Below, piece after piece: positions 1,935 to 45,246 of a stretch of DNA of 46,390 bases. How positions within the stretch are numbered: position 1 is the stretch's first letter; each line of letters begins with the position of its first letter. The notes beneath the pieces are model-generated. The model was not told the DNA's origin and searched no databases. It was given only the letters and a program-made list of their open reading frames with translations. Position numbers and translations under genes: made by a program. The DNA is taken from assembly GCA_946497955.1 (NCBI GenBank), contig CAMMMH010000012.1, positions 1-46,390 on the forward strand, written 5' to 3'. Origin of the DNA: an uncultured Mycoplasmatota bacterium. GTDB lineage: Bacteria > Bacillota_I > Bacilli_A > RF39 > UBA660.

Positions 1935-1945
1935 TACCTTACCCT

Positions 1946-9569: not shown

Positions 9570-9572
9570 AAA

Positions 9573-9598: not shown

Positions 9599-9608
9599 AT
9601 TTTTTTAC

Positions 9609-10841: not shown

Positions 10842-10884
10842 TACTCCTTACTATTATCTCTTCAAGTATAACATAAAAACGAAT

Positions 10885-12525: not shown

Positions 12526-12526
12526 A

Positions 12527-14842
12527 TTATTCTCCTGGCTTTGTTGTCATTAATTTGTATAATCTAGTATTTTTTGGAAATCGATTTATAAAAGGTACAA
12601 GTGAACTTCCATATCTAATCAACCCACACCCTGCTTCTGAATTAGTAATATATGACATTTGCTCGTCAGAAATATTTAAAAGTTGTGCTAATCTCTTCCT
12701 ATCACTAGATGCTTGATTAAGCATAACTATAAACTCACTATTAGATAACATTGTAGAAGCTTCTACAGATGATAATAAATATTCTACATTTTGTGTTATT
12801 GCTGTTGGATAAGCATTTCTTTTTCTAAACTGTCTCCATGCAGAATTAAAGAATGTTGCTGAATATTCATTTTCAAAAAGAACATGAATTTCATCAATAA
12901 AAATATGAGTTCTTTTACCTTTTCTATAATTTTCTGATACCCTATTTATTAAAGCATCTGTTATAACTAGTAAGCCCATAGTCTTTAACTGTTTTCCTAG
13001 TTTGTAAATGTCATAAGATATTATTCTACTATTAGTATCTACATTAGTTGGATGTGCAAATACATTTAATGATCCACTTGTAAATAATTCTAGTGACAAA
13101 GCTAACTCATGAGCCTCTTTTTCATCTTGTTCTAATAATTTTTCTCTTAATGTTATTAAAGTTGGCATTTCGCCAGTTTTATTATAATCATCATATACTA
13201 AAGCAGTACATCTATCAATTATAGATTTTTCTTTAGGTCCTAATCCTTTTTTATCTAGTTGTTCAAACAAAGATAAAATAAACTCTGACTTATCTACAAC
13301 TGGATTAACTCCATCGCCATACCCTTCAGTCATATCCATAGCATTTATATGGTCACGACTACTAGCAGAAATACTAATAACTTCTCCTCCTAAAGCTTTA
13401 ACTAATTCTGAATATTCTCCCTCAGGATCACAAATTAAAATATCATCTTCTGTAGATAAGGCTAAAAATGTTATTAACTCTTTTGCACTAAAAGATTTAC
13501 CACTACCAGGTACACCTAATAAAAAAGAGGACTGATTTAATAAGTTCTCTTTATTGACTAAAATTAAATTATGACTAATTGCATTCTCACCATAATAAAT
13601 ACCACCTTTATCTAATATTTCTTGTACTCTAAAAGGATTTAAAACAGCAAGACTTTCTGTAGTCAAAGTCCTTAAATTATTAATCTTTCTAACCCCTATA
13701 GGCAAAGCTGTATTTAAGCCATTCATCTGTTGATACCTCAAAGGTACTATCTGACACAAATGTTTTCTAGCAACAATTAATATTGTTTCTGTATCTGCTT
13801 CTAATTGTTCTTTAGTATCAGCAGCAATAACCAATGTTAAGTTTGCAAACATCATTCTTTGGTCTCTTGTTGTTAAGTCATCTAAAAACTCTTTACTTTC
13901 TTTTCTTTGTTGTTCCATATCATAAGGTACAACAGCACTAAAATTATTGTTAGCATTTTGTTTTCTTTGCCAGTTGGTAATATTAGTTTCAACACCTAAT
14001 AATCTATTTTCTACTTCTTTAACAGCTTCATCAGTAGGTATAGGAATTATATCTATACTCATCATCATATTTTGATTCATATCAGTAAGTTCTGCTATCA
14101 TACTATCTTTTATAAAACTAGCATATTCTTTTAAGAAAAAAACTCTGCCAAATTTTTTCCCCATCTCAAAATAATCACTTTTAAAGGAAAAGCCATCTGG
14201 ACATATATAATCTTTAAAGTTATGTCCTCTTTTCATCATTTCATGAATATCTAGATTATAATTAGTTTCTTCTCCTATTCTATAAAAATCATGAAGTAGT
14301 TTTAATTTCTCATAAGCATTTAACTCTACACATTTACTACCTAACTTTGCAAGATGTGAAACTATCTCATTACCAATTCTTCTAAAATAATTCTTTGCTT
14401 CTTCATAATCTTTCTTTACAACAGAAACCGTTAAATAAATTTCTCTTTTCATTCCATTAGCACCAAGTGCTTTATCTAATAACATCTGATTATATTCTTG
14501 TCTATATATATCTAAACCATCTTGTTTAAAAGGTAATAGTATTTCTTTTTCAAAATCTTTTTTATTAATTCTTCTTAATGCAATAGTAATCTTTGTTGTA
14601 GCTCCGCTATCAAAACAATTTAAAAGTTCTGAATAGTTTAAGAACATTGATTCTTTATCTTCTTTTGAAGCAACTGCATAATTTATATCACTAAATTTAT
14701 AAGTGAATGAATATTTATTTTTCCCAACTAAAAAAATACCATCATCATATATTCTTTTGATAGGTATTGACTGTTGAACGTTTTTAGGAACACTAAAATC
14801 TTCTCTTTCCTGTTTTTGCATAGTTAATAACGATTTAATCAT
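12527..14842 (-). CDS. virB4: VirB4-family conjugation ATPase
   Basis: A 771-residue cytoplasmic ATPase that powers type IV secretion channel assembly. It has an N-terminal VirB4/CagE domain, then Walker A GVPGSGKSFSAKE at about 440-452 and Walker B HIFIDEIHVLFENE at about 640-653. The C-terminal RecA-like part contains a TAITQN segment. The length is normal for TraE/VirB4 of Gram-positive elements. It overlaps the PrgI gene by 4 bases (ATGA) and is followed at once by the hydrolase gene, so the three are translated as one coupled unit. Confidence 0.92.
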   Translation of the reverse strand: MIKSLLTMQKQEREDFSVPKNVQQSIPIKRIYDDGIFLVGKNKYSFTYKFSDINYAVASKEDKESMFLNYSELLNCFDSGATTKITIALRRINKKDFEKEILLPFKQDGLDIYRQEYNQMLLDKALGANGMKREIYLTVSVVKKDYEEAKNYFRRIGNEIVSHLAKLGSKCVELNAYEKLKLLHDFYRIGEETNYNLDIHEMMKRGHNFKDYICPDGFSFKSDYFEMGKKFGRVFFLKEYASFIKDSMIAELTDMNQNMMMSIDIIPIPTDEAVKEVENRLLGVETNITNWQRKQNANNNFSAVVPYDMEQQRKESKEFLDDLTTRDQRMMFANLTLVIAADTKEQLEADTETILIVARKHLCQIVPLRYQQMNGLNTALPIGVRKINNLRTLTTESLAVLNPFRVQEILDKGGIYYGENAISHNLILVNKENLLNQSSFLLGVPGSGKSFSAKELITFLALSTEDDILICDPEGEYSELVKALGGEVISISASSRDHINAMDMTEGYGDGVNPVVDKSEFILSLFEQLDKKGLGPKEKSIIDRCTALVYDDYNKTGEMPTLITLREKLLEQDEKEAHELALSLELFTSGSLNVFAHPTNVDTNSRIISYDIYKLGKQLKTMGLLVITDALINRVSENYRKGKRTHIFIDEIHVLFENEYSATFFNSAWRQFRKRNAYPTAITQNVEYLLSSVEASTMLSNSEFIVMLNQASSDRKRLAQLLNISDEQMSYITNSEAGCGLIRYGSSLVPFINRFPKNTRLYKLMTTKPGE

Positions 14843-17364: not shown

Positions 17365-17418
17365 CTTACCTTATCACCTCCTAATTTCTTTGATTTTTTA
17401 TATATCTTTTAATTATTT

Positions 17419-18267
17419 TTATAATCCCATCATCTCCCTTATAATTCTGTCTGACATTTTAACAGTACCTACTAACACTAACATATTAAATATTAACTCA
17501 CATACATAAGACCACACTTGAGTAACTGCCGATGCACTAGGATCAACTGCTGGTGGACTTGTCGCAAATAAAGAAAATATTATACAAGCCAATACTATTA
17601 TTGCTCCCTCTAAACATACTGCTGTAAAAGATTTTGCAAAACTTTTTCCTACATTTTGTGTAGGCTCTCCTGCAAAAGTTGATAAAGGAATAGGAGCTAA
17701 AGCAACATACATATACAATTTAAAAAAACGTCCATAAACTGTTAAAATCATTATAAATGATAAAACTGTAATAAATAGACCACCTATCAATGTTACTGCC
17801 CACAAAGGTATCGAATCGAAAAAATTACAACTCTCTATAGCAGTTATAATCTCATTAGGTAGTACAGTTTGTGTCATTGTTGTAAAACCTGCTGTTGTCA
17901 TAATAGTTGACATTAACCCCTGTACTATTTTAAATATTGCTAACATTACATCCAAACCATAAGTTACAGCACCCTTTGCAATAGCAAATCTTACAAATAA
18001 TTTAACAGCATGTTCTGGCTTTTTAACCTCTGAAAAAGAGCCACAAGTTTTAATTACCCCAGATAAAAAAAACAATACCAATAGTGCTAAACCTATCGCT
18101 TGTACTGCACCATTTATTTTAAGTATTACAGTCCATATCTCTCCGCCTTTAAAAGCCTCTGGTGACTGAGTAATTAAGCTCCATATTTCCCCTAATTTTT
18201 CATTCCATGTTTGTAAAGCATTATTTAGATTATCAGTCACCCAATTGCCACTTAAAATAAACAACAA
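17419..18267 (-). CDS. VirB6/TrbL-like conjugation channel membrane protein
   Basis: A 282-residue polytopic protein with about five to six membrane helices after an amphipathic N-terminal segment. It shows the VirB6/TrbL pattern: hydrophobic stretches near 55-75, 95-115, 155-180, 185-205 and 220-240, with a polar GEPTQNVGKSFAKSF loop. It would form the inner-membrane part of the secretion channel. The start is TTG (tandem TTG TTG) behind a strong AAGGAGG. It follows the VirB2-like gene by 26 bases. Confidence 0.8.
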   Translation of the reverse strand: MLFILSGNWVTDNLNNALQTWNEKLGEIWSLITQSPEAFKGGEIWTVILKINGAVQAIGLALLVLFFLSGVIKTCGSFSEVKKPEHAVKLFVRFAIAKGAVTYGLDVMLAIFKIVQGLMSTIMTTAGFTTMTQTVLPNEIITAIESCNFFDSIPLWAVTLIGGLFITVLSFIMILTVYGRFFKLYMYVALAPIPLSTFAGEPTQNVGKSFAKSFTAVCLEGAIIVLACIIFSLFATSPPAVDPSASAVTQVWSYVCELIFNMLVLVGTVKMSDRIIREMMGL

Positions 18268-24652: not shown

Positions 24653-26008
24653 TTATTTAAGCATATCTTTTTCTCTATCAGTGGTATTTTCTATTTCTTC
24701 TATATTTTTTTCTATAACATTACTTCTACTTTCTATACCATTACAAAGTTTTAGTTCTTTCTTCTTTAAATTAATAGTTTTAGAAATAGTATTTATTTCT
24801 TCTTTAATAGATATTCTAGTATCTTCACCTTTTGTTTTATTATACTTTTTCCAAAGATATTCTCTTTTACTGGATAACTCTTTAATATCAGTATCGAGAT
24901 TTTCTTTATAAAGTAATAATTGTTCATAAGTTTTAATTTTATTATTTAAAAGTAGTTTTGTCTGCTCTGAGATTTTATCCATTTCTTTTACTTCTTTTTG
25001 TAATTCCTTACTTAAAAATTTTCTAGGATTTTTTTGTGGATACACTTTTAATAAATAACAATAATAATTAAATAACTTTGACATATTTTTATTGGTATTG
25101 CTTTTCTTTTTAAACTTTACTTTTTGTTTATTATTAGAATTTAATTCTTCTAGAAAAGGAACTCTTGGTAACAGTGTATTTTCTATTCTTTTTTCTATTG
25201 CTTCAATAGTATAATCACTTCCAAAAGCACGTTCAATACGAATATTTTTCTTATATGGCTCTTTTCGTATACTTATCTTTCCATATCTAATATTTATTTC
25301 ATATCCCATCTTTAACATTATATTTTCAAAGTCATTATAGGAATAAGCCATACCAATTGCTCTATCAATATCAGCTTTAGTAAGAGTATGATAATTATCC
25401 CTACTCACATATCCTTTATAATAATTATCATAGTTTACTTTACTTTTTAGACTGCTCTCTTTTTGAACTACACTTAATCCATATTCTTCACATAGTGAAT
25501 CTGATATATTTCTCATTATAGAATAACTTTCATGGCTATCATGATATTTTTTTCCGTCTTTAAATGAAACAGAATTAATAACGAAATGATTATGAATATG
25601 ATTAGTATTAACATGAGTTGTAACAATAACTTCAAACCTATCTCCCCACATTTCTTCTGCTAACTTCAAACCTATTAAATGAGCTTTATCTGCACTTATC
25701 TCTCCCTCTTTAAAAGACTGAAAGGCATGATAGCCTAATATTTTATCCTTTTTATTATATTGTTCCTTTGTAAACATCATATCTTTATATGCATTATGAG
25801 TTGAACAATTAATTGAAGATACATAGCATAGTTCTTCTGTATTACAGTCTAATTTTTCATATTCTTTCATATTATGGAGTTCTTTATAACTATTAGCATT
25901 AATTGTTTTATCAATATTAGTAACATAATTTATAACATGATCTAACCTGGTAGTTATTTTCCATATTCCTGTTGTAGCCATTAATACACCTATATCAAAG
26001 ATTATCAT
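24653..26008 (-). CDS. Conjugative relaxase (MobA/VirD2-like, MOBP type)
   Basis: A 451-residue relaxase that nicks oriT and leads the DNA strand into the recipient. The three-histidine metal site is seen as THVNTNHIHNHFVINS (His132, His137, His139). An N-terminal RLDHVINYVTN segment holds a candidate catalytic Tyr28. The C-terminal third is lysine-rich and coiled-coil. The ATG at 26008 overlaps the mobC stop (ATGA). The family usually begins MATT, which here is the ATG at 25981 (residue 10) with a weak AGGTG site, so the start may be there. It pairs with MobC and lies downstream of a candidate oriT. Confidence 0.88.
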   Translation of the reverse strand: MIIFDIGVLMATTGIWKITTRLDHVINYVTNIDKTINANSYKELHNMKEYEKLDCNTEELCYVSSINCSTHNAYKDMMFTKEQYNKKDKILGYHAFQSFKEGEISADKAHLIGLKLAEEMWGDRFEVIVTTHVNTNHIHNHFVINSVSFKDGKKYHDSHESYSIMRNISDSLCEEYGLSVVQKESSLKSKVNYDNYYKGYVSRDNYHTLTKADIDRAIGMAYSYNDFENIMLKMGYEINIRYGKISIRKEPYKKNIRIERAFGSDYTIEAIEKRIENTLLPRVPFLEELNSNNKQKVKFKKKSNTNKNMSKLFNYYCYLLKVYPQKNPRKFLSKELQKEVKEMDKISEQTKLLLNNKIKTYEQLLLYKENLDTDIKELSSKREYLWKKYNKTKGEDTRISIKEEINTISKTINLKKKELKLCNGIESRSNVIEKNIEEIENTTDREKDMLK

Positions 26009-32800: not shown

Positions 32801-35800
32801 TCTAAATATTTTACATTTATTTCAAAAAATGAATCTGTTTCTGCATACTTCTTTGCAATTTTCAATTTTTCTCTTATATCACCAGATAAATATTCGTCTG
32901 CTGTTACCCAAACTTCTTCTTTATCAAATGATGGGACTTTAAAAATTTGTCCTCTTAATTCTTCTATTATTTTTTCATATTCCATACCTGTTAATTCTTT
33001 AATAAAATTAATATCAACTTTAGCTCTCTCTGATATAGATACTATTAGTGCCTCTTGAGCTGTATCTACCCTTGTAATTTCTCTATTAGGATTAATAGTT
33101 CTCTTGAAAAACATATCAGCTTTACTCTTTAATTCTTTATTTTCATCTAGAATTTCTAATGAGCAAAGTAAATAGAAACTACTATCATTAGAAAAAGCAG
33201 AGGTGTTAGCTCTACTATTTATAAGACCATATTTTTTTGTAAAATTATCATATAAAACATTTAGTTTATCTTGTTCCTGCCTTATTTCTTCATCAGAATA
33301 GTTTTCTACTTGAAGTTCAATTAAATATCTTACACAATCTCTAATTTCAATTAGTCCTTTAATTCTATTTTGTGTAGTTAAAGCCACTTCCTGTAAATAC
33401 ATTCTGCTATTTTCACGATAATATATCTTATCATCTATTATAGCATAAGAAAAATTTCTAACACTTGGATCAGCTTCAATAGAATTATCTTCTTCTTCTA
33501 ATTCTTCTAATTCATAGTTATTAATTTCAGCATGAATATTCTCTATTGCATTATTTAGTAAATCTTCTATATTTTTATCTTCATAAGAAATACAAGCAGA
33601 CACATCACCATATTGTGAAGGAATCATTTCCATTTTTCCTAAAATCATATTCGGATTATCAACAAAATATTTATTCATTGTAATTCCATTTGAGTCTGTA
33701 TTTAAGTAAACCCAGTCTGGCTCTATATCTGTTATAGAATCACGTTTTTGCAAGAATAGAATATCAGTAGTTACAGTTGTTCCAGCATTTCCTTGAAAAA
33801 TATTATTAGGTAAACGTATTGCACCTAATAAATTAGCTCTTTGAGCAATATATTTTCTAGTTCTTTCATCTTTTTTATCAAGTGTTCCTTTTGATGTAAT
33901 TAATGCTATTATTCCTCCAGGACGTGTTTTGTCTATTGTCTTTGCGAAGAAATAATCATGTATAACAAAGTGATATTGATTATATTTTTTATCAAAAACA
34001 GGAAAATCACCAAAAGGTACATTTCCAACTACAACATCAAAAAAGGAATCTGAATAATTCATATCTTCAAAACCTTGAATAGCAATAGAACTTCTTTGAT
34101 ATAATTGTCTAGCAATTCTACCACTTAAATCATCTTTTTCAACTCCATATATTTTTAATTTATCATTATTAGGTAACATTCCAATAAAATTACCAATACC
34201 ACAAGACGGCTCTAAAATATTACCTTTTTCAAGTCCCATATTCTCAAGAGCTTTATATATATATTTAATGATAACAGGTGGTGTATAAAAGGAAGTTAAA
34301 GTAGAAGTCATTGCTTCATTAAATTCATTTTCAGTTAGTAGTTGTTTCAACTCTTGATATTCACTTAACCAATTACCATTTTTATCAAAAGCTTCCGATA
34401 AACCACCCCATCCAACATACTTTGCTAATACTTCTTGTTCTTCTTTTGTAGCATATCTATCTTCACTTTCACAAAGTTTCAAAACCTTAATTGCATTTAT
34501 ATTATTTTGATAACGTTCCTTTGCTGTTCCAGCTCCCAAATAATCATCATGAATTTGATAATTTATCCGTTCTTCAAAAGGCACTTCCGGATGCAGTACA
34601 TAATTAACAAGCCTATTTTTTCTAATTCTCTTTTGTTCTTTAGGTTTAGGATTATCAATTATTGCAACATTTTCATTATCATTAACATTAGAAAGCATTT
34701 CATCATTACCAATACTTAAGTCCAATATCTTATCATCAAATTTAAGATAATGAACTATTAATAGATCTGGTGTAATTGCTATGGAAAAATCTTCATCTTT
34801 ACTTAAATATTTAAATAATGAATTTGTTTGAACACTTTCTCTTAATACTATTTCATCAGTTTTATCTTTATTAAATTGAGTAAAACTAGTTTCATTATAT
34901 CCAGTACACTTATCACTTTTAATAACAACAGTTAAATTCCTTTTTTTAGAAGAAATATGATCCCATTTTGCTAACTCTATTTTATCTATATAAAAGGTAT
35001 CTTTATATTTAGTATCTAATTTATTAAATTCTTCAACAATTCTATCAGCAAACTCTTGTTCTTTTGTAGCAAATAATGATAGTTGCTCAGTATCACCAGT
35101 TTTAATTGGTATTTTTTCTTTTTCAGTCAGTTCTTTTGAAGCTTTCTCATCTTCAATTGCACTATACTTTTTACGATATTCCTCTAATCTTCTTAAATCC
35201 TTATCATCAACATTTGATACACTACCATCCTCATTATACTCAAATAACTCATTAAAAAGAAAAGAATAAAATTCTTCTCCTTCCCATACATTATTACTAT
35301 CATCATTAGCTATGATAACCTCGTCTTCGTTAAAGTCCATGATAATATCATGTATTCCATAACTTGATAAAATATGGTCTATTAAATCAATTTCATCATT
35401 ATATTCTCCATAGTAATTATCTGTAACATCTTTTATTGAGACAGTTGTTTTCAGATGGTCATTTGCAGGATTTTCTCTTAATTTATTTTCAAAATCAACT
35501 ATACCCATTTCCCTACCAATTAATGGTAGCTGTGGATTATACAACTCGACATTAAATAATCCAACTTTTTCTATAATATACTCATCTAATCCTATAAATA
35601 CTTTATCGCCCTTTTTATAATCATACTTATCTTCATTAGAAAAAAGAATACCATTATTGATATTCTCTTCTGCTTCTTCTTCTAAACGCAAATCAATTCT
35701 TTCATTATTATCTCTTCTGCTTGATTCTTGATACTGTTCATCATTCCAGTCCACTTCATCTGATTTTTCAATTTCAATTCTTCTGTCACTTGAAGTTCTA

Positions 35801-36864
35801 CTTTCATCTGTTCCATTATCAATTCTACTCGTTTCTGTGATGTTTCCTCGACCTCGTTCAGATGATTGATTAAAGTCCCTTTCATCAACATTGCTTGATA
35901 CATTCCCCTCTTTTGACTCTTTAGATACTCTAATCTCATCATTCCATACTTCCCTCTTATCATAGTCTCCTCTTTGGTCACTAAGTTCGGTAGTAGAAAT
36001 CCTTCTCTCTCGATATAAGTCATCATTATCGCTCCTTTCTTTGCTTTCATTATCAGAATATATCAAATTATCTTTTTTCTCAAATGTACGAATTTTTTCT
36101 ATCTCTGCTATACGTATATTTTTTAAAGATAAATATATTTCTTGAAGCCCCATTCCAGAAATATCACTTATTGCTGTACCTAATTGACTAATCGTTTCTA
36201 TGTCTTGAAAAAAAGATATATTGCTGAAATCAGTATAATTAAAATAAGAAGTAGGCTCAATACCACTTCTATTAATAATCATAAAAGCAATACTATTTAT
36301 TAATAATTCTTTATAATTTTTTTCAATAACATCATTAGAAATACTTTCTAATCTAGTATTTGCTTTACTTGCAATTAAGTCATTAAAATAATCACTATAA
36401 TTATCATCTGTTAAATGAATTGCTAACGACTTTATTGCTTCAACAAAATTATCTTTATTTTCTATATAGCCAAACTTATTTTCCAAAGTTTCAATAACTT
36501 GTTCCTCATACACTTTTGGAACAGACCATAATTTTAACTTTTTACCTTTTCTTCCATAAATGCTATGAGTATCATTTAATCCCCAAACGTATTTAATATG
36601 AAAGCTACCATTATTTTCTGTTAATAAACCAATTCCTGGGCAACCTGTATTAACAAACCTTTTATATGTCCCATTCCATGTTGTAATTTCAGCACAAGCT
36701 ACCGCTTCTTTCCTTTGAGCGTAAATAAGTAACTGTTCACTAAAACCATTAGTATAGTTCATAGAAGCAGTTTTAAGAAAATCTAACCATATTTCAGGAT
36801 CAGTTGTTATATTATCAATTGTCTCTTGATAAAGTTCATTGATTAACTTAACTGTGGTCGCCAT
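29803..36864 (-). CDS. Giant methylase-helicase of ICE (SNF2-like, N6-methylase motif)
   Basis: A 2353-residue protein of the kind found on Tn1549-like elements. Residues 1-250 form an ArdC-like N-terminal domain (NGFSEQLLIYAQRKEAVACA). About 270-400 is a charged Ser/Arg/Glu linker. About 850-1010 is an adenine-methylase-like domain with LEPSCGIGNFIGML (near 883) and VVGNVPFGDFP (near 945; NVPF replaces the usual NPPY). An SF2 helicase follows: AHEVGAGKTFTM (near 1550), DEAHYYKN (near 1714), GTPISNS (near 1765) and QRAGRIVRQG (near 2040). The rest is coiled coil. It probably protects and processes transferred DNA. The frame is intact. Confidence 0.9.
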   Translation of the reverse strand: MATTVKLINELYQETIDNITTDPEIWLDFLKTASMNYTNGFSEQLLIYAQRKEAVACAEITTWNGTYKRFVNTGCPGIGLLTENNGSFHIKYVWGLNDTHSIYGRKGKKLKLWSVPKVYEEQVIETLENKFGYIENKDNFVEAIKSLAIHLTDDNYSDYFNDLIASKANTRLESISNDVIEKNYKELLINSIAFMIINRSGIEPTSYFNYTDFSNISFFQDIETISQLGTAISDISGMGLQEIYLSLKNIRIAEIEKIRTFEKKDNLIYSDNESKERSDNDDLYRERRISTTELSDQRGDYDKREVWNDEIRVSKESKEGNVSSNVDERDFNQSSERGRGNITETSRIDNGTDESRTSSDRRIEIEKSDEVDWNDEQYQESSRRDNNERIDLRLEEEAEENINNGILFSNEDKYDYKKGDKVFIGLDEYIIEKVGLFNVELYNPQLPLIGREMGIVDFENKLRENPANDHLKTTVSIKDVTDNYYGEYNDEIDLIDHILSSYGIHDIIMDFNEDEVIIANDDSNNVWEGEEFYSFLFNELFEYNEDGSVSNVDDKDLRRLEEYRKKYSAIEDEKASKELTEKEKIPIKTGDTEQLSLFATKEQEFADRIVEEFNKLDTKYKDTFYIDKIELAKWDHISSKKRNLTVVIKSDKCTGYNETSFTQFNKDKTDEIVLRESVQTNSLFKYLSKDEDFSIAITPDLLIVHYLKFDDKILDLSIGNDEMLSNVNDNENVAIIDNPKPKEQKRIRKNRLVNYVLHPEVPFEERINYQIHDDYLGAGTAKERYQNNINAIKVLKLCESEDRYATKEEQEVLAKYVGWGGLSEAFDKNGNWLSEYQELKQLLTENEFNEAMTSTLTSFYTPPVIIKYIYKALENMGLEKGNILEPSCGIGNFIGMLPNNDKLKIYGVEKDDLSGRIARQLYQRSSIAIQGFEDMNYSDSFFDVVVGNVPFGDFPVFDKKYNQYHFVIHDYFFAKTIDKTRPGGIIALITSKGTLDKKDERTRKYIAQRANLLGAIRLPNNIFQGNAGTTVTTDILFLQKRDSITDIEPDWVYLNTDSNGITMNKYFVDNPNMILGKMEMIPSQYGDVSACISYEDKNIEDLLNNAIENIHAEINNYELEELEEEDNSIEADPSVRNFSYAIIDDKIYYRENSRMYLQEVALTTQNRIKGLIEIRDCVRYLIELQVENYSDEEIRQEQDKLNVLYDNFTKKYGLINSRANTSAFSNDSSFYLLCSLEILDENKELKSKADMFFKRTINPNREITRVDTAQEALIVSISERAKVDINFIKELTGMEYEKIIEELRGQIFKVPSFDKEEVWVTADEYLSGDIREKLKIAKKYAETDSFFEINVKYLEESMPKELDASDISVRLGATWIPVEIIEEFLWDLLEPSWYAKDKIKVHFMKSIGQWNIENKNFDSGNVKVNSTYGTHRINAYKIIETTLNLRDVKVYDYKVDINGVKKQELNKKETAIALAKQEQIKNAFVEWVWKDIDRREKLCKIYNEKFNSIRPREYDGSHIKFFGMNPEIKLRDHQVNGVARILYGGNTLLAHEVGAGKTFTMVASAMESKRLGLCNKSMFVVPNHIVEQFASEFLQLYPSANILVTTKKDFSTANRKKFCSRIATGDYDAVIISHSQFEKIPMSYGRQKELLERQRDDVVKSLTNLRDNRGEHTTIKMLMKVQKQVEAKLKKLNDTSRKDDVVTFEELGVDRLFVDEAHYYKNLYVFSKMRNVGGISQTESQKSSDLFMKCRYLDELTGGRGIIFATGTPISNSMVELYTMQRYLQYAELEKRNLQTFDAWASTFGETVTAIELAPEGTGYRAKTRFAKFYNLPELMAMFKEVADIQTADMLNLPVPKANYENIVVKPTEMQKKIVESLGERAEAVRNNEVRPDVDNLLKITNDGRKVALDQRLYDNKLPDDENNKISICANNIYRIWDKYKDKKLTQLVFCDLSTPKNDGNFNAYDELKRKLELKGIPEEEVQFIHYANTDIRKKELFAKVRKGIVRALMGSTQKMGAGTNCQDKLIALHDLDCPWRPSDLQQRAGRIVRQGNENKEVYIYRYVTEGTFDAYSYQLIENKQRFISQVFTSKNPVRQAEDIDETALSYAEIKALAAGNPLIIEKTELDTEVAKLKVLKQSYESQKYSLEDKIAKFYPIEIKNKETKISKLEADFKLLKSNIVSDKFIGMIINNDKIIDKALAGKKILDLCKSLTNTKEVEIGEYKKFKMAIAYDTTSKDYEIILKNNLSYETNLGDDAIGNITRIDNLLSRIEEKLESTKNDLKETIKQYNIAKEEVKKPFKQEEELKEKTKRLNKLNVMLNLNNKNKNKEIIEFEEDNDDNINFSKSNREFVR

Positions 36865-37983: not shown

Positions 37984-38640
37984 TTATTCTACCTCCAATT
38001 CAAAAATAAAAACTATTTGTTTATTTTCGTTGTCTTTACAAGTAATTAAAGTTAAAGCACTAATATCTGAATCTTTAATGATTAATGCTTTACCAGTTTT
38101 TTCCACTTCATATTTATCAATTAAATTATATTTATACTTATTATTTTTATAATATATATAAGCAGAATCTCCTAATTCTAATTTTTTTAAATCTTTAAAA
38201 TAAGCATTATAACCAGTACCAGAGTGTCCTGCTAGAATAAAATTCCCATTAGTTACATCTGGCATATCAGACTCATTTAAAAGCATTATATTTTTATCAA
38301 CATTATTGTTTTTTGAATTTATTGAATATATCCCTTTTTTTAAATCAATTTTAGGTATTTCTAATACTGCTATAAAACCCTCATTGCTTTGAGAACTACT
38401 TTTCTCATTTTTATTTGAGAAAGAACTTGCTAATGAGCTAGTTTCATTTTCAACATCAGTTTGTTCATTAAAAAATATATCAATTTTAGTAGTCTCTTCT
38501 TGATCCAAATTATATTCATAAAAATATTTACATACAATTATTCCAATACCAATAATTATAAGAAGTAAAGAGCCGACTTTTAATAGCCGACTCTTAGTTA
38601 ATAATTTTGTATTATTTTTTCTTTTTCTTAACATATACAT
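37984..38640 (-). CDS. Sortase (surface protein transpeptidase)
   Basis: A 218-residue sortase with an N-terminal membrane helix (about residues 22-40), a Ser/Asn-rich spacer, and the sortase barrel from about 88. The catalytic His139 is in ILAGHSGTG and Cys201 in ALTLITCKD. No arginine occurs after Cys201; the sequence KQIVFIFE has Gln where most sortases have the catalytic Arg. It overlaps the surface-protein gene by 29 bases. Its likely substrate is that protein's VPDTS signal. The start may be residue 1 or the ATG at residue 3. Confidence 0.85.
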   Translation of the reverse strand: MYMLRKRKNNTKLLTKSRLLKVGSLLLIIIGIGIIVCKYFYEYNLDQEETTKIDIFFNEQTDVENETSSLASSFSNKNEKSSSQSNEGFIAVLEIPKIDLKKGIYSINSKNNNVDKNIMLLNESDMPDVTNGNFILAGHSGTGYNAYFKDLKKLELGDSAYIYYKNNKYKYNLIDKYEVEKTGKALIIKDSDISALTLITCKDNENKQIVFIFELEVE

Positions 38641-40096
38641 ACATACCTACACCACTAATTATTGCTATACAACCAATTATTTCAAAAATATGATAATCTA
38701 TTGAAGATGTATCAGGAACTTCAACAATTCTTGAATCTTTCATATTAACTTTAATTATTTGTCCATCTTCAGTTATAGAAAAATACATTCTGTCAGGATT
38801 TAACTCATAACCCTCTGGAGCTTCTTTTTCTAGAATGTAATAATCTCCATACTCCATATTCTTTATAATTATATAGCCATCTTCATCTGTTCTACCACTA
38901 AATACTAATTCATCAGTATTGGCGTCATAAATTTCAATTAATGTGTTAGGAAGCCCAAGATCAGTAGAAAAGTCTGTTTTAGTAAATATTAAGTCTGATT
39001 TTATCTTTTCATTTTTAAACATAACATTTATCTTTGTTTGTGTAGCAGTAACCTCAAATGTATAATCTTCAATAAATTTATAACTTTCAATTCCTTTTAT
39101 TTGATGTAAGCGATACTTCCCAAACCCAAGATTAATATTCATTGCACCATCTGCATCAGTAGTTAGTGTTTCTATTAATTCACCTGTACTTTCATCATAA
39201 AGTTCAAAAACAGCTCCCTGTTCTGGAATATATACTCCTGTATTTTCATTACCATAATATTTTGTACCTGTAAAAGGAACATTAGCATAAATTTCTAAAT
39301 AAGCCAATCCTGCAACTGGATCTCCTGCTGAAAGACAATATTGATTTGCTCCTTCATACAAAATTGGTCTGTTTGTATTTTCTTTTGTTGTAAGCATTAT
39401 TTCCCCTTCATATCCAGTTTTAGCAGTAATAACTAAATTATTACCATCAATATTTGCAGAATAATTATCTGTTTCTACTCCTTCATAATATTTTGATAAT
39501 ACTCCATTTGTATCAGTTAAAGTAATAGTATTACCAGCAGTCATTTCAACTTTCTGACCATAAAAGCTAGGTTGAGTTGTATGATTATCCACTAAAGAAT
39601 TAATTTCTGCATAATAACTATCATAACGATTTGACGGAGTTAAAGTTGAATCATTATCTTCTATTGCATAAATATAGCCAGGATTTGTAATCTGCCATAT
39701 TAGCATTTGGGTTGCATAGTACCACTCTGGACTAGTATGGCTTCCATACCCATAGCCATAATAAGCGATTAATCTTATCCTATCCATTTGTTCCTTACTT
39801 AAATTAGTCATACTTACCATTGTATCTTCATCAACAATACCATTAACTACTCCAGATATTAATTTTATATCAGCTTGAATACAATAAACAGGAGCATTAT
39901 CAGATTTTCTTCTAATCATTTTTTCCTGTGTTTTTACTCTATCTGTTGTACCCCAATTATATGTGGCTACCCACCACTGATAATCATAATCAATAAACAA
40001 TTCATCTTGAATCGTTTGAGCATTTACTTTCATAAATGCAAACACATTAAAAATAGCTAATGCTATTAATAAAATCTTTGTTATATTTTTTCTCAT
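38612..40096 (-). CDS. Thioester-domain / SpaA-type surface protein with sortase signal
   Basis: A 494-residue secreted protein with a signal peptide at about 1-26. A thioester domain has Cys72 (APVYCIQAD) and a partner Gln130 (YYATQMLIWQI), a pair that in such adhesins forms an internal thioester able to bind host or cell surfaces covalently. Two SpaA/Cna-B-type domains follow (about 275-362 and 368-455, the second with YILEKEAPEGYEL). The C-terminus is VPDTS, a hydrophobic helix and a lysine tail, the sorting signal for the adjacent sortase. It probably mediates cell contact for mating or colonisation. Confidence 0.85.
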   Translation of the reverse strand: MRKNITKILLIALAIFNVFAFMKVNAQTIQDELFIDYDYQWWVATYNWGTTDRVKTQEKMIRRKSDNAPVYCIQADIKLISGVVNGIVDEDTMVSMTNLSKEQMDRIRLIAYYGYGYGSHTSPEWYYATQMLIWQITNPGYIYAIEDNDSTLTPSNRYDSYYAEINSLVDNHTTQPSFYGQKVEMTAGNTITLTDTNGVLSKYYEGVETDNYSANIDGNNLVITAKTGYEGEIMLTTKENTNRPILYEGANQYCLSAGDPVAGLAYLEIYANVPFTGTKYYGNENTGVYIPEQGAVFELYDESTGELIETLTTDADGAMNINLGFGKYRLHQIKGIESYKFIEDYTFEVTATQTKINVMFKNEKIKSDLIFTKTDFSTDLGLPNTLIEIYDANTDELVFSGRTDEDGYIIIKNMEYGDYYILEKEAPEGYELNPDRMYFSITEDGQIIKVNMKDSRIVEVPDTSSIDYHIFEIIGCIAIISGVGMYVYVKKKKK

Positions 40097-41019: not shown

Positions 41020-41979
41020 TTATCGAGCTTGCTCATTTCTTTCCTTCAATTTTTTTTGATGTTTGTCATAAAATACAACAGCCTTTATAACATAATCCTC
41101 CCTTTCTTTATCATTTTTTAAATTACTTGGGAGTACAGGTTTAAGTTTATTCATACTTACTTTTAAAGCAGGAGTCTGATTAGGTTTTTCAACATCTAAT
41201 ATTTTTTCCATTTTTTCTATTGTAAATGTATTAGACTCACTCATCTTTTTTAATTCTATTGCTTGATGTTGTGATGGTGTTATTTGATTAAACTCTATAT
41301 AGTCAAGCAAACTTTTCTGTTCTTCCCTTTTTAAAAATGAAATTTCAACTGCTGGGCTTAATGCAATAGATAATTCTTCTGAATCTTTAATAACAGAATT
41401 ATCAACATACTTTAAAAGTTTAGGTAATAGATAAGTTAATCTAATATATCTTTGAACTTGTCTGCCACTTTCATTATTACCTTTCCCTATTATATCAGCT
41501 GTTATCGACTTCTCGACAACTTGTCGAGAAGTTATTTTACCTTGATGACTTAAAGCTTCCATTTTTAACTTATAAGCAAAAGCTTTTTCACTAGGCAATA
41601 ATTTTTCACGTTGCAAATTACTATCAACCATAATTATTGTCGCTTCATCATCACTTAAATCACGAACAATACAGGGAATAGTATCTAAATCAGCTAATTC
41701 ACTAGCTTTTTTTCTCCTATGACCAGAAATCATTTCATATTTACCATTTTCCTTTTTTCTTACAATGGCAGGTACTAATACTCCTTTTGATTTAATACTT
41801 TCTACCATTTCATCCATTTCTGCATTTTTTATAACTTGAAAAGGATGCTGTGGGAAATCATCAATATCAGCAATTTTTATATCTACAACTTTCTCTAAAT
41901 TAGCATTATCTCGTTCTTCTTGAGTAGTAAATAAATCATCTATCGTAGGAAGGTGCATCTTGCTTTCTTGTTTTGCCAT
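41020..41979 (-). CDS. parB: ParB-family partition protein
   Basis: A protein of about 319 residues. The N-terminal ParB domain shows the CTP-binding motifs MISGHRRKKASE (about residues 86-97, GxRRxxA) and MVDSNLQREKLLPSEKA (about 118-134). A central helix-turn-helix follows (TSRQVVEKS region, then GRQVQRYIRLTYLL), and then a helical tail. It would bind a parS site and with ParA keep an excised or replicating element. AAAGGAGG lies 3 bases before an ATG at 41985 and 9 before that at 41979; the latter is chosen. The gene overlaps the end of parA. A 25-bp palindrome lies inside it. Confidence 0.88.
   Translation of the reverse strand: MAKQESKMHLPTIDDLFTTQEERDNANLEKVVDIKIADIDDFPQHPFQVIKNAEMDEMVESIKSKGVLVPAIVRKKENGKYEMISGHRRKKASELADLDTIPCIVRDLSDDEATIIMVDSNLQREKLLPSEKAFAYKLKMEALSHQGKITSRQVVEKSITADIIGKGNNESGRQVQRYIRLTYLLPKLLKYVDNSVIKDSEELSIALSPAVEISFLKREEQKSLLDYIEFNQITPSQHQAIELKKMSESNTFTIEKMEKILDVEKPNQTPALKVSMNKLKPVLPSNLKNDKEREDYVIKAVVFYDKHQKKLKERNEQAR
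41508..41532. repeat. 25-bp perfect palindrome inside parB (candidate parS)
   Basis: ACTTCTCGACAA, a central C, and TTGTCGAGAAGT: 12-bp arms, every base pairing. It encodes Thr-Ser-Arg-Gln-Val-Val-Glu-Lys just before the DNA-binding part of ParB. Partition sites are short palindromes often found in or near parAB, so this is the best candidate here. Confidence 0.55.
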
Positions 41980-42757
41980 CTTCATCTACCTCCTTTGCAA
42001 ATTGTAAGTAAGCATCTGCAACCTTACTTCTTTTGTCATAAGAAAAAATACTTTGTCCCACTTTTGTTGACTCGGCAACTTTTATAGCTGTTGGAATTTT
42101 GGTATTATATATTTTTATAATACTCCCGTAGCTTTCTTGCAAGGCTACCTTTGTCTCTTTTGACAGTTTTGTCCTCTCATCAACTAATGTTAATAAAATT
42201 CCTCCAACACTTAAATTAGGGTTTATTTGTCTTTTGACCTTTGATACTGTACCAAGTAATTGCCCCATAGCTTTAGCAGCTAAATATTGAGTTTGCACTG
42301 GAATAATGACTTTATCGGAACAAGATAAAGCATTAAGTGTAATCATATCTAAACTAGGATTACAATCTATTAATATATAATCGTAATTTTTCTTAATATC
42401 TTTTAAACAATTCCTCATAGTATATTCTCTACTCATTGCACTTACTAATGATAAAGATACAGCAGATAAATCTAAGTTTGATGGAAGTAAATCTATATTT
42501 TCTTTATGGTGTAGAATTATACTTTCGGCATCTATATCATAATCATTAATCGAAGCTTCCATTAGATTAGCTATTGTAGGAATGTTATCAGTATCATAAT
42601 AACCCAAACAAACAGTAAGGTCACCTTGAGGATCTGCATCGACTAATAATACCTTCTTACCTAATTTAGACAATGCAACACCTAAATTAAATGTGGTAGT
42701 GGTCTTACCAACGCCTCCCTTTTGATTGGCGATTGAAATAACTTTACAATTAGACAT
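41936..42757 (-). CDS. parA: ParA-family partition ATPase
   Basis: A 273-residue deviant-Walker ATPase. The Walker A is NQKGGVGKTTTTFN (residues 11-24, KGGVGKTT), the A' motif LLVDADPQGDLT (about 37-48) and the Walker B YILIDCNPSLDM (about 125-136). It moves ParB-bound DNA over the nucleoid. There is no N-terminal helix-turn-helix, so it is a short (type Ib/Soj-like) form. AAAGGAGGGAG precedes the ATG. It is the first protein-coding gene inside the element's right end, with a palindromic operator over its promoter. Confidence 0.92.
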   Translation of the reverse strand: MSNCKVISIANQKGGVGKTTTTFNLGVALSKLGKKVLLVDADPQGDLTVCLGYYDTDNIPTIANLMEASINDYDIDAESIILHHKENIDLLPSNLDLSAVSLSLVSAMSREYTMRNCLKDIKKNYDYILIDCNPSLDMITLNALSCSDKVIIPVQTQYLAAKAMGQLLGTVSKVKRQINPNLSVGGILLTLVDERTKLSKETKVALQESYGSIIKIYNTKIPTAIKVAESTKVGQSIFSYDKRSKVADAYLQFAKEVDEDGKTRKQDAPSYDR

Positions 42758-42878: not shown

Positions 42879-42957
42879 TGGTGTTCCCGAGTGGAATCGA
42901 ACCACCGCAAAACCAGGCTTCGGGGACCTGTGCTCTATCCAACTGAGCTACGGGAAC
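42879..42957 (-). tRNA. tRNA-Arg (anticodon CCG), probably element-encoded
   Basis: A complete cloverleaf on the minus strand: acceptor GTTCCCG / CGGGAAC, D stem GCTC / GAGC, anticodon stem CAGGT / GCCTG with loop CCCCGAA (anticodon CCG, reading CGG), and T stem GGTGG / CCACT with loop TTCGATT. The discriminator is A, with an encoded CCA. The variable region (GTTTTGC) has 7 bases rather than the usual 4-5, giving a total of 79 nt. An extended -10 lies just upstream and a terminator downstream. A broken tRNA with the same anticodon sits 180 bases away. Confidence 0.9.
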
Positions 42958-42966
42958 ATCTATACC

Positions 42967-42975
42967 ATTTTAACA
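42967..42975 (-). promoter_or_regulatory. Extended -10 promoter of tRNA-Arg
   Basis: On the minus strand TGTTAAAAT (TG, one base, TAAAAT), about 10 bases before the tRNA 5' end. There is no clear -35. The orphaned host tRNA promoter further upstream could also transcribe this tRNA. Confidence 0.45.
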
Positions 42976-43041
42976 TAAAAATATAAAAAATGATTTTATT
43001 TTTTTAAAATTTGTTAGTATTTTTTTAAGATAGATAAATTT

Positions 43042-43062
43042 ATTCGCGACAGATTCGCGACA
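43042..43062. repeat. Tandem direct repeats, 11-bp period (candidate integrase arm sites)
   Basis: ATTCGCGACA occurs twice, at 43042-43051 and 43053-43062, separated by one base, so the copies are one helical turn apart. They lie about 75 bases inside the inferred crossover in the broken tRNA. Tyrosine integrases bind such direct repeats with their N-terminal arm-binding domain. Confidence 0.55.
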
Positions 43063-43136
43063 CTTATTATCTTATATTTCTATCTTTTCTTATAAAATAA
43101 AGGTTTAATTAATAATCGCTATACTTTAACCAATTT

Positions 43137-43176
43137 CTTCGGAGGGAAACGCTCTATCCTACTGAGCTACGTGAAC
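43137..43176 (-). pseudogene. 5' half of a disrupted tRNA-Arg (CCG)
   Basis: On the minus strand a tRNA begins GTTCACG TA GCTC AGTAGGATA GAGC G TTTCC CTCCGAA G, with anticodon CCG at 43140-43142. After the anticodon loop the sequence leaves tRNA structure: the expected GGAAA half-stem is not completed, and there is no T arm or acceptor 3' strand. The promoter is intact. It aligns with the complete tRNA-Arg at 42879-42957 over the D arm and acceptor 5' strand. I read it as the host gene cut by the element. Confidence 0.8.
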
Positions 43177-43184
43177 ATAACTAA

Positions 43185-43213
43185 ATTATAGCATTGCTCC
43201 CTTTATTTTACAA
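43185..43213 (-). promoter_or_regulatory. Promoter of the disrupted tRNA-Arg, now reading into the element
   Basis: On the minus strand TTGTAA (43208-43213), a 17-base spacer and TATAAT (43185-43190) with TG at the extended -10 position. Transcription should begin about 43178, at the tRNA 5' end, and would now enter the element toward the intact tRNA-Arg. Confidence 0.8.
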
Positions 43214-43230
43214 TTATTAACATCTGTAAT

Positions 43231-43260
43231 TTGACAAACTTATGAAAATTAACATAAACT
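43231..43260 (+). promoter_or_regulatory. Promoter of glmS
   Basis: TTGACA (43231-43236), an 18-base spacer and TAAACT (43255-43260). Transcription would start near 43267, about 35 bases before the ribozyme. A perfect 8-bp inverted repeat ATAAGTTA / TAACTTAT (43271-43297) lies in the short leader upstream of the cleavage site. Confidence 0.6.
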
Positions 43261-43300
43261 ATTATTAAGGATAAGTTAGATGGAGGTAATAACTTATTTT

Positions 43301-43428
43301 AGTGCCAGAACCAGTTTGGTTGACGAGGTTGATAGTTATCGAAAATTCGGCGGATACTATCACGGCTACTAGTCGTAAGGTATATGACAAAAAGTAAAAT
43401 CAAGATTACAACAAAACATATATCAAAG
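43301..43428 (+). ncRNA. glmS ribozyme / GlcN6P riboswitch
   Basis: The conserved glmS ribozyme core is present in order: AGTGCCAGAAC, then GTTGACGAGG, TTATCGA, TTCGGCGGAT, CACGGCT and GTCGTAAGG. A TATATG / CATATA stem (43381-43386 with 43417-43422) enclosing GTAA / TTAC follows. Self-cleavage should fall between A43301 and G43302 when glucosamine-6-phosphate is bound, lowering glmS mRNA. The first core bases are AGTGCC rather than AGCGCC; the change keeps a G-U pair with GGCG. Confidence 0.93.
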
Positions 43429-43443
43429 TAGTAAGGAGTTTAT

Positions 43444-45246
43444 ATGTGTGGAATTGTTGGGGCAGTTTCTAAAAATAGAAATATATTGCCTATTTTAATA
43501 ACGGGATTAAAAAATCTTGAGTATAGAGGTTATGACTCAGCAGGGGTCGCATACCTTAAAAATAATAAAATAAATATTGTAAAAACAAGTGGTAAAGTAA
43601 GTAAACTTGAAAATAAACTTAATAAGAGTGATGAAAGTAATATAGGTATAGCTCATACTAGATGGGCTACTCATGGGAAAGCGAATAGTGTTAATGCTCA
43701 TCCTCATAGAGTTAATCATATTACTATTGTTCATAATGGTATAATTGAAAATTTTAAAGAGATTAAAGATATGTTAGAAAAAGAAAACTATTCTTTTAAG
43801 TCTAGTACAGATACAGAAGTAGGATGTGCTTTATTAAATTACTATTATGAAAAGTTTAATGATGTAGATAAGACTATTAAAGCTTTTATGAATAAAGTTA
43901 TTGGTAGTTATGCTATTCTTATGATTATTGATAATGACTTAGATAATCTTTATGTAATGAAAAAAGAAAGTCCTTTAGTAATAGGAATTACTGATAAGAC
44001 TAATATTGTCGCTAGTGATATTAGAGCGATATTAAAATATACTAATAAATACTATATATTAGATGACTTTGAATATGCTAGAGTTAATGCTAATGAAGTT
44101 GTAATTAAGTCCGTTAAAGGAGATATTTTAAATAAAGAATTACATACCATTGATATAAAAGATAGTGATAATTATAAAGGCCATTATAAACATTATATGT
44201 TAAAAGAGATAATGGAACAGAAAACAACTATTTTAAAGACAGTATTACCTTTTATAAAAGAAGGACTAGATTCTTTAAAGACTTTACCAGATTTAACTAA
44301 GTATAAAGAAATCACTATTGTTGGTTGTGGTACTGCTTACCATGCCGGACTAGTTGCAAAATATCTTTTTGAAGAAGTTACTAATACAAGATGTAATGTT
44401 TATCTAGCTAGTGAGTTTAGATATCAAAATAACTTTTTATCTAAAGATACTCTAACTATCTTTATCTCTCAGTCAGGAGAAACAGCCGATACTATCGCTG
44501 CTTTAAAGCTTGTTAAAAGTAAAAACTGTCCTACTTTAGGTATTATTAATGTAGAAGATAGTACTATATCTTATTTAGTAGATACTTGTCTTTATACGAA
44601 AGCAGGAAGTGAAATAGCAGTAGCATCTACTAAAGCTTATACTGCTCAAGTAGCTCTTCTTTCTATTCTAGTACTTTCTCATGGACTAAGGAATAAAACA
44701 ATAAGTAGAGATAGAGCATTAGAGGTAATAGATGAATTTAAAAGTATAGAGAAACTAATCACTCCTCTATTAAATGATAAAGATACATATCTATCTATTG
44801 CAAAAAACATCTATAAAGAAGAAGATTTCTTCTATATAGGAAGAGGCCTTGACTATTATCTTAGTATGGAAGGTGCTTTAAAATTAAAAGAAATATCTTA
44901 TATTCATAGCGAATCATATTCTGCAGGAGAATTAAAACATGGTACTATTTCTTTAATTAAGAAAAATACTCCTGTACTTGCTAGTGCCACTAACTCTTGT
45001 TTAAATCCTAAAACTATTAGTAATTTAAAAGAAGTTCTAGCAAGAGGTGCCGATATATATTTAATATGTAATGATAATTATAAGGATGATACTTTCACTA
45101 TCATAAATATTCCTAGAACAAGTGAATTTATTAAAACTGTATTAGTTATAATTCCTTATCAATTAATCGCTTATTATACTGCCACTTTAAGAGGAACTGA
45201 TATAGATAAACCTAAAAATTTAGCAAAGTCTGTTACTGTTGAGTAA
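43444..45246 (+). CDS. glmS: Glutamine-fructose-6-phosphate aminotransferase
   Basis: A 600-residue full-length GlmS, which makes glucosamine-6-phosphate from fructose-6-phosphate and glutamine at the entry to peptidoglycan amino-sugar synthesis. The N-terminal glutaminase domain has the Cys nucleophile (MCGIVGAV) and HTRWATHG (about 71-78). The C-terminal part has two SIS domains, with FISQSGETADT and ASTKAYTAQ, and ends LAKSVTVE as usual for the family. GTAAGGAG lies 5 bases before the ATG. It is controlled by the upstream ribozyme. Ordinary chromosomal gene, intact. Confidence 0.97.
   Translation: MCGIVGAVSKNRNILPILITGLKNLEYRGYDSAGVAYLKNNKINIVKTSGKVSKLENKLNKSDESNIGIAHTRWATHGKANSVNAHPHRVNHITIVHNGIIENFKEIKDMLEKENYSFKSSTDTEVGCALLNYYYEKFNDVDKTIKAFMNKVIGSYAILMIIDNDLDNLYVMKKESPLVIGITDKTNIVASDIRAILKYTNKYYILDDFEYARVNANEVVIKSVKGDILNKELHTIDIKDSDNYKGHYKHYMLKEIMEQKTTILKTVLPFIKEGLDSLKTLPDLTKYKEITIVGCGTAYHAGLVAKYLFEEVTNTRCNVYLASEFRYQNNFLSKDTLTIFISQSGETADTIAALKLVKSKNCPTLGIINVEDSTISYLVDTCLYTKAGSEIAVASTKAYTAQVALLSILVLSHGLRNKTISRDRALEVIDEFKSIEKLITPLLNDKDTYLSIAKNIYKEEDFFYIGRGLDYYLSMEGALKLKEISYIHSESYSAGELKHGTISLIKKNTPVLASATNSCLNPKTISNLKEVLARGADIYLICNDNYKDDTFTIINIPRTSEFIKTVLVIIPYQLIAYYTATLRGTDIDKPKNLAKSVTVE

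What the first reader, a model, noticed from the sequence alone, without database searches (positions are those of the whole stretch)
42879..43176. Element appears to disrupt host tRNA-Arg(CCG) and supply its own replacement
Seen directly: a promoter-bearing 5' half-tRNA with anticodon CCG stops right after the anticodon loop at 43137, and 180 bases further in is a complete tRNA-Arg with the same CCG anticodon. CGG has usually one dedicated tRNA in AT-rich Firmicutes, so losing it would be costly. Known biology: tyrosine integrases often recombine in tRNA anticodon loops, and most elements restore the tRNA 3' half. Inference: this element does not restore the gene but carries a full substitute, a form of addiction in which excision and carriage are tied to an essential tRNA.
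Basis: partly seen in the sequence, partly recalled or inferred. Interest (0 to 1): 0.85.

Follow-up and report, generated by a model that had tools for sequence, protein, structure and literature searches.

The report
Conjugative element swaps host tRNA gene
A mobile DNA element of uncultured, probably gut-dwelling bacteria cuts a host tRNA gene for one arginine codon in two and brings along a complete tRNA gene with the same anticodon, a trick so far described mainly for bacterial viruses.

Summary
The window is one contig of a MAG and carries the right end of an integrative conjugative element (ICE) in the anticodon loop of tRNA-Arg(CCG) beside glmS. The missing 3' half and a tyrosine integrase lie on another contig; the halves pair perfectly. 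Relative G022 shows the empty site. Both ends share only 8 bp, so the tRNA is not rebuilt. The complete tRNA-Arg(CCG) at 42879-42957 is the only CCG tRNA found in the genome.
Ten genomes show a complete element-borne tRNA-Arg beside a severed host tRNA-Arg; the anticodon matches in 10 of 10 (1 CCG, 9 CCT). In G009 the element is gone but its tRNA has replaced the native gene. Conjugation genes were checked in two of the ten; the related integrase was found at attL in five.
The mechanism is published for phages as tRNA-dependent lysogeny (2024). New here: use by a conjugative element, an anticodon that seems to have followed a change of target, and a fossil replacement. The "addiction" claim needs correction: precise excision should rejoin the native tRNA, and essentiality is untested.

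The parts
43137..43176 (-). Severed 5' half of the native host tRNA-Arg(CCG), ending in the anticodon loop
   Evidence: pairs 7/7 (acceptor) and 5/5 (anticodon stem) with the 3' half on contig C9
43137..43144 (-). attR common core CTCCGAAG (8 bp), the anticodon loop plus one base
43044..43060 (.). Arm-type repeat pair TCGCGA-N5-TCGCGA, also at the attL end (C9:17899-17915)
42967..42972 (-). Putative -10 box (TAAAAT) of the carried tRNA; TGTTAAAAT or a close variant stands before the other carried tRNAs
   Evidence: read by eye, not tested
42879..42957 (-). Complete element-borne tRNA-Arg(CCG), with encoded CCA, C at position 33 and a 7-nt variable region
41936..42757 (-). ParA of the ICE
   Evidence: Pfam AAA_31
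41020..41985 (-). ParB of the ICE
   Evidence: Pfam ParB_N
24653..26008 (-). MobA/VirD2-type relaxase
   Evidence: Pfam PF03432, 129.4 bits
18605..20404 (-). VirD4-like coupling protein, CD1115 family
   Evidence: NCBIfam NF045973, 524.6 bits, cut-off 250
12527..14842 (-). VirB4-like conjugation ATPase, CD1110 family
   Evidence: NCBIfam NF045971, 1026 bits, cut-off 325
43290..43434 (+). Host glmS ribozyme, flank of the insertion
   Evidence: Rfam RF00234
43444..45246 (+). Host glmS, flank of the insertion
   Evidence: ORF; named from its place after the ribozyme and its conservation in relatives, no family search made

Best explanation
An ICE integrates through its tyrosine integrase into the anticodon loop of the host's tRNA-Arg(CCG) gene. 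Its two ends share only the 8-bp loop CTCCGAAG, so neither junction gives a tRNA. The ICE carries a complete tRNA-Arg with the same anticodon about 180 bp inside attR, apparently with its own promoter, and this tRNA takes over decoding of CGG while the ICE is integrated. Shown by sequence: the split, the pairing of the halves, the empty site, the carried tRNA and its uniqueness in the assembly, and the same arrangement in other genomes. Inferred: that the carried tRNA is expressed, charged and needed. It works like tRNA-dependent lysogeny of phages, but in a conjugative element.
For: The 3' half at G000:C9:17716-17762 lies beside an integrase ORF. Halves pair 7/7 and 5/5 in 7 of 7 genomes where both ends were found. 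Cores are 7-10 bp and core-to-carried-loop distance 208-222 nt in those 7. Empty site: G022 locus L039 has the C9 left flank (91.6% over 1,491 bp), an intact tRNA and glmS together. One CCG tRNA among 34 tRNA hits. Ten complete carried tRNAs all match the severed or native anticodon. Within one genus G000 lost CCG and carries CCG, while G010 and G006 lost CCT and carry CCT, each with the other native tRNA intact. G009 lost the element and the native tRNA but kept the carried one. ICE genes.
Against: No expression or essentiality data. CGG is very rare (24 of 96,020 codons). G023, a genus-mate, showed no CCG gene by the pattern search. The carried CCG tRNA has C33 (U33 being near-universal is recalled) and only one assembled copy. 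C9 and C12 are separate contigs of a 92% complete MAG, so this ICE is not seen in one piece (a related one is, in G040:C7). The integrase family was not found in G010, G006, G009 or G034 and only as distant matches in G366 and G260; the gene beside attL in G006 is not an integrase. AGG can probably be read by tRNA-Arg(UCU) through wobble (recalled), so the nine CCT cases may be helpful rather than essential.
Confidence: 0.87

Rival explanations
1. The carried tRNA serves another purpose, such as matching the ICE's own codon usage or resisting tRNA-cutting defences, and its anticodon matches the broken gene by accident.
For: AGG is more frequent in ORFs of the window's ICE part (50 of 11,771 codons) than in ORFs of other contigs (256 of 96,020). 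Phage tRNAs are proposed to evade tRNA-targeting defences (a reference title and one discussion passage seen).
Against: Anticodon matches in 10 of 10, and no other tRNA was found in the sequence fetched at these ends. ICE ORFs in the window hold 4 CGG in 11,771 codons and the C9 part 0 in 8,922. G009 kept only the tRNA end after losing the element.
Confidence: 0.07
2. Ordinary tRNA-targeting island in which a later event broke the restored tRNA; the second tRNA is a leftover host or older-island copy.
For: Restored-type relatives exist: direct repeats containing the 3' half of 70 bp in G157, 45 bp in G056 and 49 bp in G043.
Against: Seven of seven two-ended cases share only 7-10 bp. Carried tRNAs lie inside the att sites, and the same one (77/77) sits in two genera beside different severed host halves.
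Confidence: 0.03
3. Misassembly or binning error joins unrelated pieces.
For: Fragmented MAG of 81 contigs.
Against: The same junction is in G034, another assembly whose glmS flank differs; 7 of 7 halves pair; a related element lies entire in one contig, G040:C7.
Confidence: 0.02

Closest known systems
tRNA-dependent lysogeny (Guerrero-Bustamante and Hatfull 2024, PMC10865867; outline with abstract, sections 10 and 11, and passages read)
   Same: Tyrosine integrase; attB in a tRNA gene; core of 8-17 bp in its Table 2; tRNA not rebuilt; [quoted passage not shown] related integrases of the rebuilding type exist.
   Different: Those are temperate actinobacteriophages; here a conjugative element in uncultured bacteria of another group. 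Targets are tRNA-Arg(CCG) and (CCT), which are not in their Table 2. The need for the tRNA was tested there, not here.
Lactobacillus johnsonii prophage Lj965 (as cited in PMC10865867, discussion read)
   Same: Said to fail to rebuild the tRNA and to encode a cognate tRNA.
   Different: Prophage; original papers not read.
Sinorhizobium meliloti phage-related sequences (PMC11476347, passages read)
   Same: Inactivated tRNA-Leu(UAG) said to be replaced by an element-borne one resembling that of other species.
   Different: Phage-related sequences in Alphaproteobacteria; no conjugative element in the passages read.
Canonical tDNA islands (Islander, PMC4383910, start of abstract seen in listing)
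   Same: Integrase splits a tRNA gene at a precise site.
   Different: There the island's own sequence restores the gene; here it does not.

Membership tests
tRNA-dependent lysogeny | Tyrosine integrase recombining at an attB inside a host tRNA gene | tested here: met
   Pfam PF00589; attL and attR halves and empty site. Recombination itself not observed
tRNA-dependent lysogeny | Short shared core, tRNA not reconstructed at either junction | tested here: met
   8-bp core in G000, 7-10 bp in 7 of 7
[quoted passage not shown]
   10 of 10
tRNA-dependent lysogeny | Carried tRNA required for survival of the integrated state | not testable with these tools
   Needs a deletion experiment; G009 is only suggestive
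tRNA-dependent lysogeny | Element is a temperate phage establishing lysogeny | tested here: not met
   Relaxase, VirD4 and VirB4 present. PHROGs scan of 10 proteins gave integrase, ParA/ParB-type families, a few other named non-structural ones and families without function, none named structural; the other ORFs were not scanned against PHROGs
Integrative and conjugative element | Integrase, relaxase, coupling protein and VirB4 ATPase between two att sites | tested here: met
   on C12 and C9, which were not seen joined. On one contig between both ends in G040:C7: integrase, VirB4-type ATPase, relaxase (its coupling protein was not looked for). Not annotated in the other eight genomes
Integrative and conjugative element | Self-transfer by conjugation | not testable with these tools
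   Indirect: near-identical element ends in two genera
[quoted passage not shown]
   Core of 8 bp only

The most novel reading that the evidence does not exclude
A group of conjugative elements drives replacement of host tRNA genes. The carried tRNA belongs to the element's own lineage, changes its anticodon when the integrase changes target (CCT to CCG), may be controlled by an operator-like palindrome over its promoter, and stays behind as the host's only copy when the element decays. ICEs would then be an engine of tRNA gene turnover, and cells could become permanently dependent on a tRNA of mobile origin.
Probability: 0.45. Interest if true: 0.75.

Novelty: new variant of a known kind. Interest (0 to 1): 0.63.

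Why it matters
The phage paper says that it is unclear how tRNA-dependent systems relate to canonical rebuilding ones and how widespread they are outside actinophages. Here a replacing and a rebuilding element with related integrases lie in tandem at one site (G043), and the replacing kind is a conjugative element in an unrelated bacterial group. One genome caught after loss of the element shows a way by which a core tRNA gene is replaced by a foreign one. This makes the question testable by comparative genomics.

Tried and rejected
Integrase search in viral contigs gave no relative. In phages (772 records) and plasmids (183 records) all matches were under 60% identity and none covered 80% of the query; the 30 rows listed are 24-32% identical. 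An exact search for the carried anticodon arm in viral contigs found nothing. ParA as a marker of attR gave one useful end, G040:C7, among 12 loci. Trans-splicing of the halves was dropped because a complete tRNA is present; no search for leaders was made. The predicted minimum-energy fold of the carried tRNA is not a cloverleaf, nor is that of the G036 CCT tRNA, while the native CCG tRNA is; I give this little weight but it is not in favour. G035 (99% integrase) and G034 could not show their carried tRNA in the assembled contigs. A first small host sample held 0 CGG in 9,173 codons; the larger one 24 in 96,020.

Limits of the counts. The arm pattern matched 39 of 385 genomes, but the reversed control pattern also matched in 17 by my count of the table, so many of the 39 are chance. 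Ends were found through the arm pattern, so 10 of 10 describes ends found, not a random sample. The gene count pattern demands CTCC[GT]AA and a GTTYRANNC T loop and misses other loops; a full tRNA inventory was made only for G000. In the ten genomes I dropped 8 of its rows as not tRNA by eye, and ARAGORN then found no tRNA at any of the 8. As a control, 8 of 10 genus-mates chosen without a seen insertion had one CCG and one CCT gene; G023 lacked CCG and G030 lacked CCT. Genomes with an attL half but no attR found: G035, G037, G039, G041, G068, G289, G371, G388; in G041, G068 and G289 the pattern found no complete CCT gene at all, in G035 no complete CCG gene, and G388 has two complete CCT genes. 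These are unresolved. I lowered the novel case from 0.50 to 0.45 and the main confidence from 0.88 to 0.87 after the integrase re-search.

Full report
What is there. The window is the whole contig C12 (46,390 bases) of a 1.72-Mb, 81-contig assembly, 92.2% complete. A complete tRNA-Arg(ccg) lies at 42957-42879 on the minus strand. A 5' half with the same anticodon lies at 43176-43137 on the same strand. To its right are the glmS ribozyme and glmS.

The 5' half is the native gene, broken. A genus-wide search with 43120-43700 matched 34 of 35 genomes, the window's own included. Of the 29 fetched loci from other genomes, 28 hold an intact tRNA-Arg(CCG) there; the 29th, G034, has the same break. 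Five genus-mates gave no locus to check (G005, G013, G031, G032, G023).

The missing half and the integrase. Searching the window's own genome with an empty-site relative's tRNA and flank found the 3' half at C9:17716-17762. Beside it, reading towards it, is a 585-aa tyrosine integrase ORF. The halves pair 7 of 7 in the acceptor stem and 5 of 5 in the anticodon stem. The two junctions share only CTCCGAAG (8 bp). The same arm-type repeat pair lies at both ends. In relative G022 the C9 left flank (91.6% over 1,491 bp), the intact tRNA and glmS lie together in one locus, which is the empty site.

It is an ICE. The window encodes a MobA/VirD2 relaxase, a VirD4 of the CD1115 family and a VirB4 of the CD1110 family (the last two above NCBIfam cut-offs), ParA, ParB, a sortase and an adhesin-like protein. 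C9 beyond the integrase holds transporters and a nucleoside hydrolase. C9 and C12 were not seen joined; if all of C9 beyond attL belongs to it, the element is at least about 75 kb. In G040 (apparently the same contig as G356:C7) a related element of about 33.5 kb lies in one contig with integrase, VirB4-type ATPase, relaxase, ParA/B, carried tRNA and both severed halves. Conjugation genes were looked for in these two elements only.

No other CCG tRNA in this genome. All 34 Rfam tRNA hits were examined with ARAGORN; the Arg anticodons are ACG, TCT, CCT and the carried CCG. CGG occurs 24 times in 96,020 codons of 223 mechanical ORFs of at least 200 aa on other contigs, in 20 ORFs. One of these looks like DNA topoisomerase I by its first residues (recalled, not searched).

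The same arrangement elsewhere. The integrase found nine close relatives (53-99% identity) among 11 loci in named MAG contigs; the nine are titled Bacilli, Clostridia or Erysipelotrichaceae. All nine are followed by a tRNA 3' half that starts in the anticodon loop (in L078 the contig ends there): one CCG, seven CCT, one with a CGT loop. A search of 385 order-level genomes for the arm repeat matched 39, many surely by chance. Reading the ends so found and the places from a tRNA pattern search of 34 chosen genomes gave ten complete carried tRNAs beside a severed host tRNA-Arg: G000 (CCG) and G356, G260, G010, G006, G366, G036, G038, G043, G009 (CCT). An eleventh, G034, is cut by the contig end. 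The anticodon matches in 10 of 10; for G009 the severed loop has one changed base and the match is to the intact gene of its sister G002. Among the ends I read, none with a severed 5' half and assembled sequence past the arm lacked a carried tRNA. The pattern search found no second complete gene of that anticodon in these ten genomes, after eight non-tRNA rows were set aside and checked; it can miss unusual loops. In the 7 genomes with both ends (G000, G356, G366, G036, G038, G043, G006) the halves pair 7/7 and 5/5, cores are 7-10 bp and the core-to-carried-loop distance is 208-222 nt.

The integrase is not always there. A re-search with an alignment of nine integrases found strong matches at attL in G000, G356, G036, G038 and G043. 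G366 and G260 gave only distant matches on other contigs, and G010, G006, G009 and G034 none at 1e-20. In G006 the gene beside attL is not an integrase. So these ends share arms, core and carried tRNA, but for about half of them the enzyme is unknown; contig gaps, a different integrase or help in trans are all possible.

Within one genus the pattern is reciprocal. G000 has lost CCG and keeps native CCT. G010 and G006 have lost CCT and keep native CCG. The carried tRNAs of G006 and G366, from different genera, are identical (77/77). Their element ends are 99.3% alike over 268 nt and 98.8% over 1,129 nt, both alignments ending at or near the att core, while the severed host halves differ. So the tRNA travels with the element.

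Anticodon follows target. In a tree of 32 carried and other tRNA-Arg genes, the carried CCG tRNA of G000 groups with the carried CCT tRNA of G036 (support 0.969; 81% identity, the next best being 73%; the best native CCG gene has 70%). The integrase of G036 (66%) is the nearest after the 99% copy. The simplest reading is a CCT lineage that moved to the CCG gene and changed its anticodon to match. This rests on one event.

A fossil. G009 and its sister G002 are 96.8% and 96.6% identical on the two sides of the tRNA-Arg(CCT) locus. G002 has the native gene. G009 has the native 5' half with one changed loop base, then the arm repeat and a complete carried tRNA-Arg(CCT), then host sequence; the rest of the element and the native 3' half are not there. 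No integrase of this family was found in G009. The cell therefore appears to live on the carried tRNA.

Rebuilding relatives. Direct repeats of 70 bp (G157), 45 bp (G056) and 49 bp (G043, a second element in tandem) contain the 3' half. Related integrase sequence is shown for the G043 tandem element and for a short C-terminal piece in G056; none was found in G157.

What it works like and what it is. The published phenomenon is tRNA-dependent lysogeny (PMC10865867: outline with abstract, sections 10 and 11, and passages read). Three sequence features of that system are met here; the need for the tRNA is untested; being a temperate phage is not met. S. meliloti phage-related sequences (PMC11476347, passages) and Lj965 (cited in the phage paper) are further cases. 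Among 18 papers holding the phrase 'tRNA-dependent lysogeny' (listing) no title or abstract start concerns ICEs, and the listings of the other literature searches showed no ICE case; their full texts were mostly not read. I therefore rate it a new variant of a known kind.

Limits. The named relatives are MAGs, and the window's own genome is a fragmented assembly. Function, expression and essentiality are inferred. The carried CCG tRNA has C33 and only one assembled copy, and its predicted fold is not a cloverleaf. The CCT cases may not be essential, since tRNA-Arg(UCU) may read AGG (recalled). Addiction in the strict sense is not shown; precise excision should restore the native gene, so the trap is against loss of the carried tRNA by deletion.

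Noticed in passing
window 42919-42925 (anticodon loop of the carried tRNA): The carried CCG tRNA has C at position 33 (loop CCCCGAA) and a 7-nt variable region. It could be an error, a weak decoder, or protection of the carried gene from its own integrase, whose core is CTCCGAAG.
   Followed up: partly
55 bases upstream of carried tRNAs, e.g. window 42958-43012: An inverted repeat of 10-14 paired bases lies upstream of 10 of 10 carried tRNAs, in 9 of them ending a few bases before the tRNA over the -10 region, with different arm sequences; 4 of 14 native controls reach 10. Shuffle p values run from 0 to 0.065; in G000 it is placed elsewhere (p 0.065). Possibly an operator. The ten are not independent.
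   Followed up: partly
window about 43027-43087 and the same place in other attR ends: A GATAGA...TCTATC-like inverted repeat (GGAYAG...CTATCC in others) flanks the arm pair in several attR ends, seen by eye; possibly further integrase or excisionase sites.
   Followed up: no
L138 (G006:C36) and L140 (G366:C57): attL ends 98.8% identical over 1,129 nt with no integrase beside them; the gene next to attL in G006 looks like a sugar dehydrogenase (by eye). Which recombinase moves these elements is unknown.
   Followed up: partly
L192 (G043:C31) 161-15200: Two related integrase regions, each followed by an identical tRNA-Arg(CCT) 3' half, 13.7 kb apart: a replacing and a rebuilding element apparently in tandem; part of the second integrase reads with stops.
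   Followed up: partly
L073 (G000:C9) about 16748-17684: About 0.94 kb between a host acetyltransferase-like ORF and the tRNA 3' half is absent from relative G022; another small insertion beside the site.
   Followed up: no
window 29803-36864: 2,353-aa SNF2-type helicase protein with weak matches to antiphage families (DISARM DrmD, phospholipase D-like), all far below the curated cut-offs.
   Followed up: no
window 37984-40096: Sortase next to a thioester-domain and SpaA-type surface protein inside the ICE; the G040 element also has a longer SpaA protein beside its ParB region.
   Followed up: no
L074 6995-15197 (G000:C9): Four consecutive ABC exporter genes and an MFS transporter on C9 beyond the integrase.
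   Followed up: no
L147 (G226:C4): A tRNA-Thr(CGT) variant: intact tRNA at one end, a displaced 3' half about 7.5 kb away and a related integrase end (51% over 159 aa), so a rebuilding type with another target.
   Followed up: partly
G000:C2:6510-6584 (L067): ARAGORN calls a tRNA with an undetermined two-base anticodon here; not looked into.
   Followed up: no
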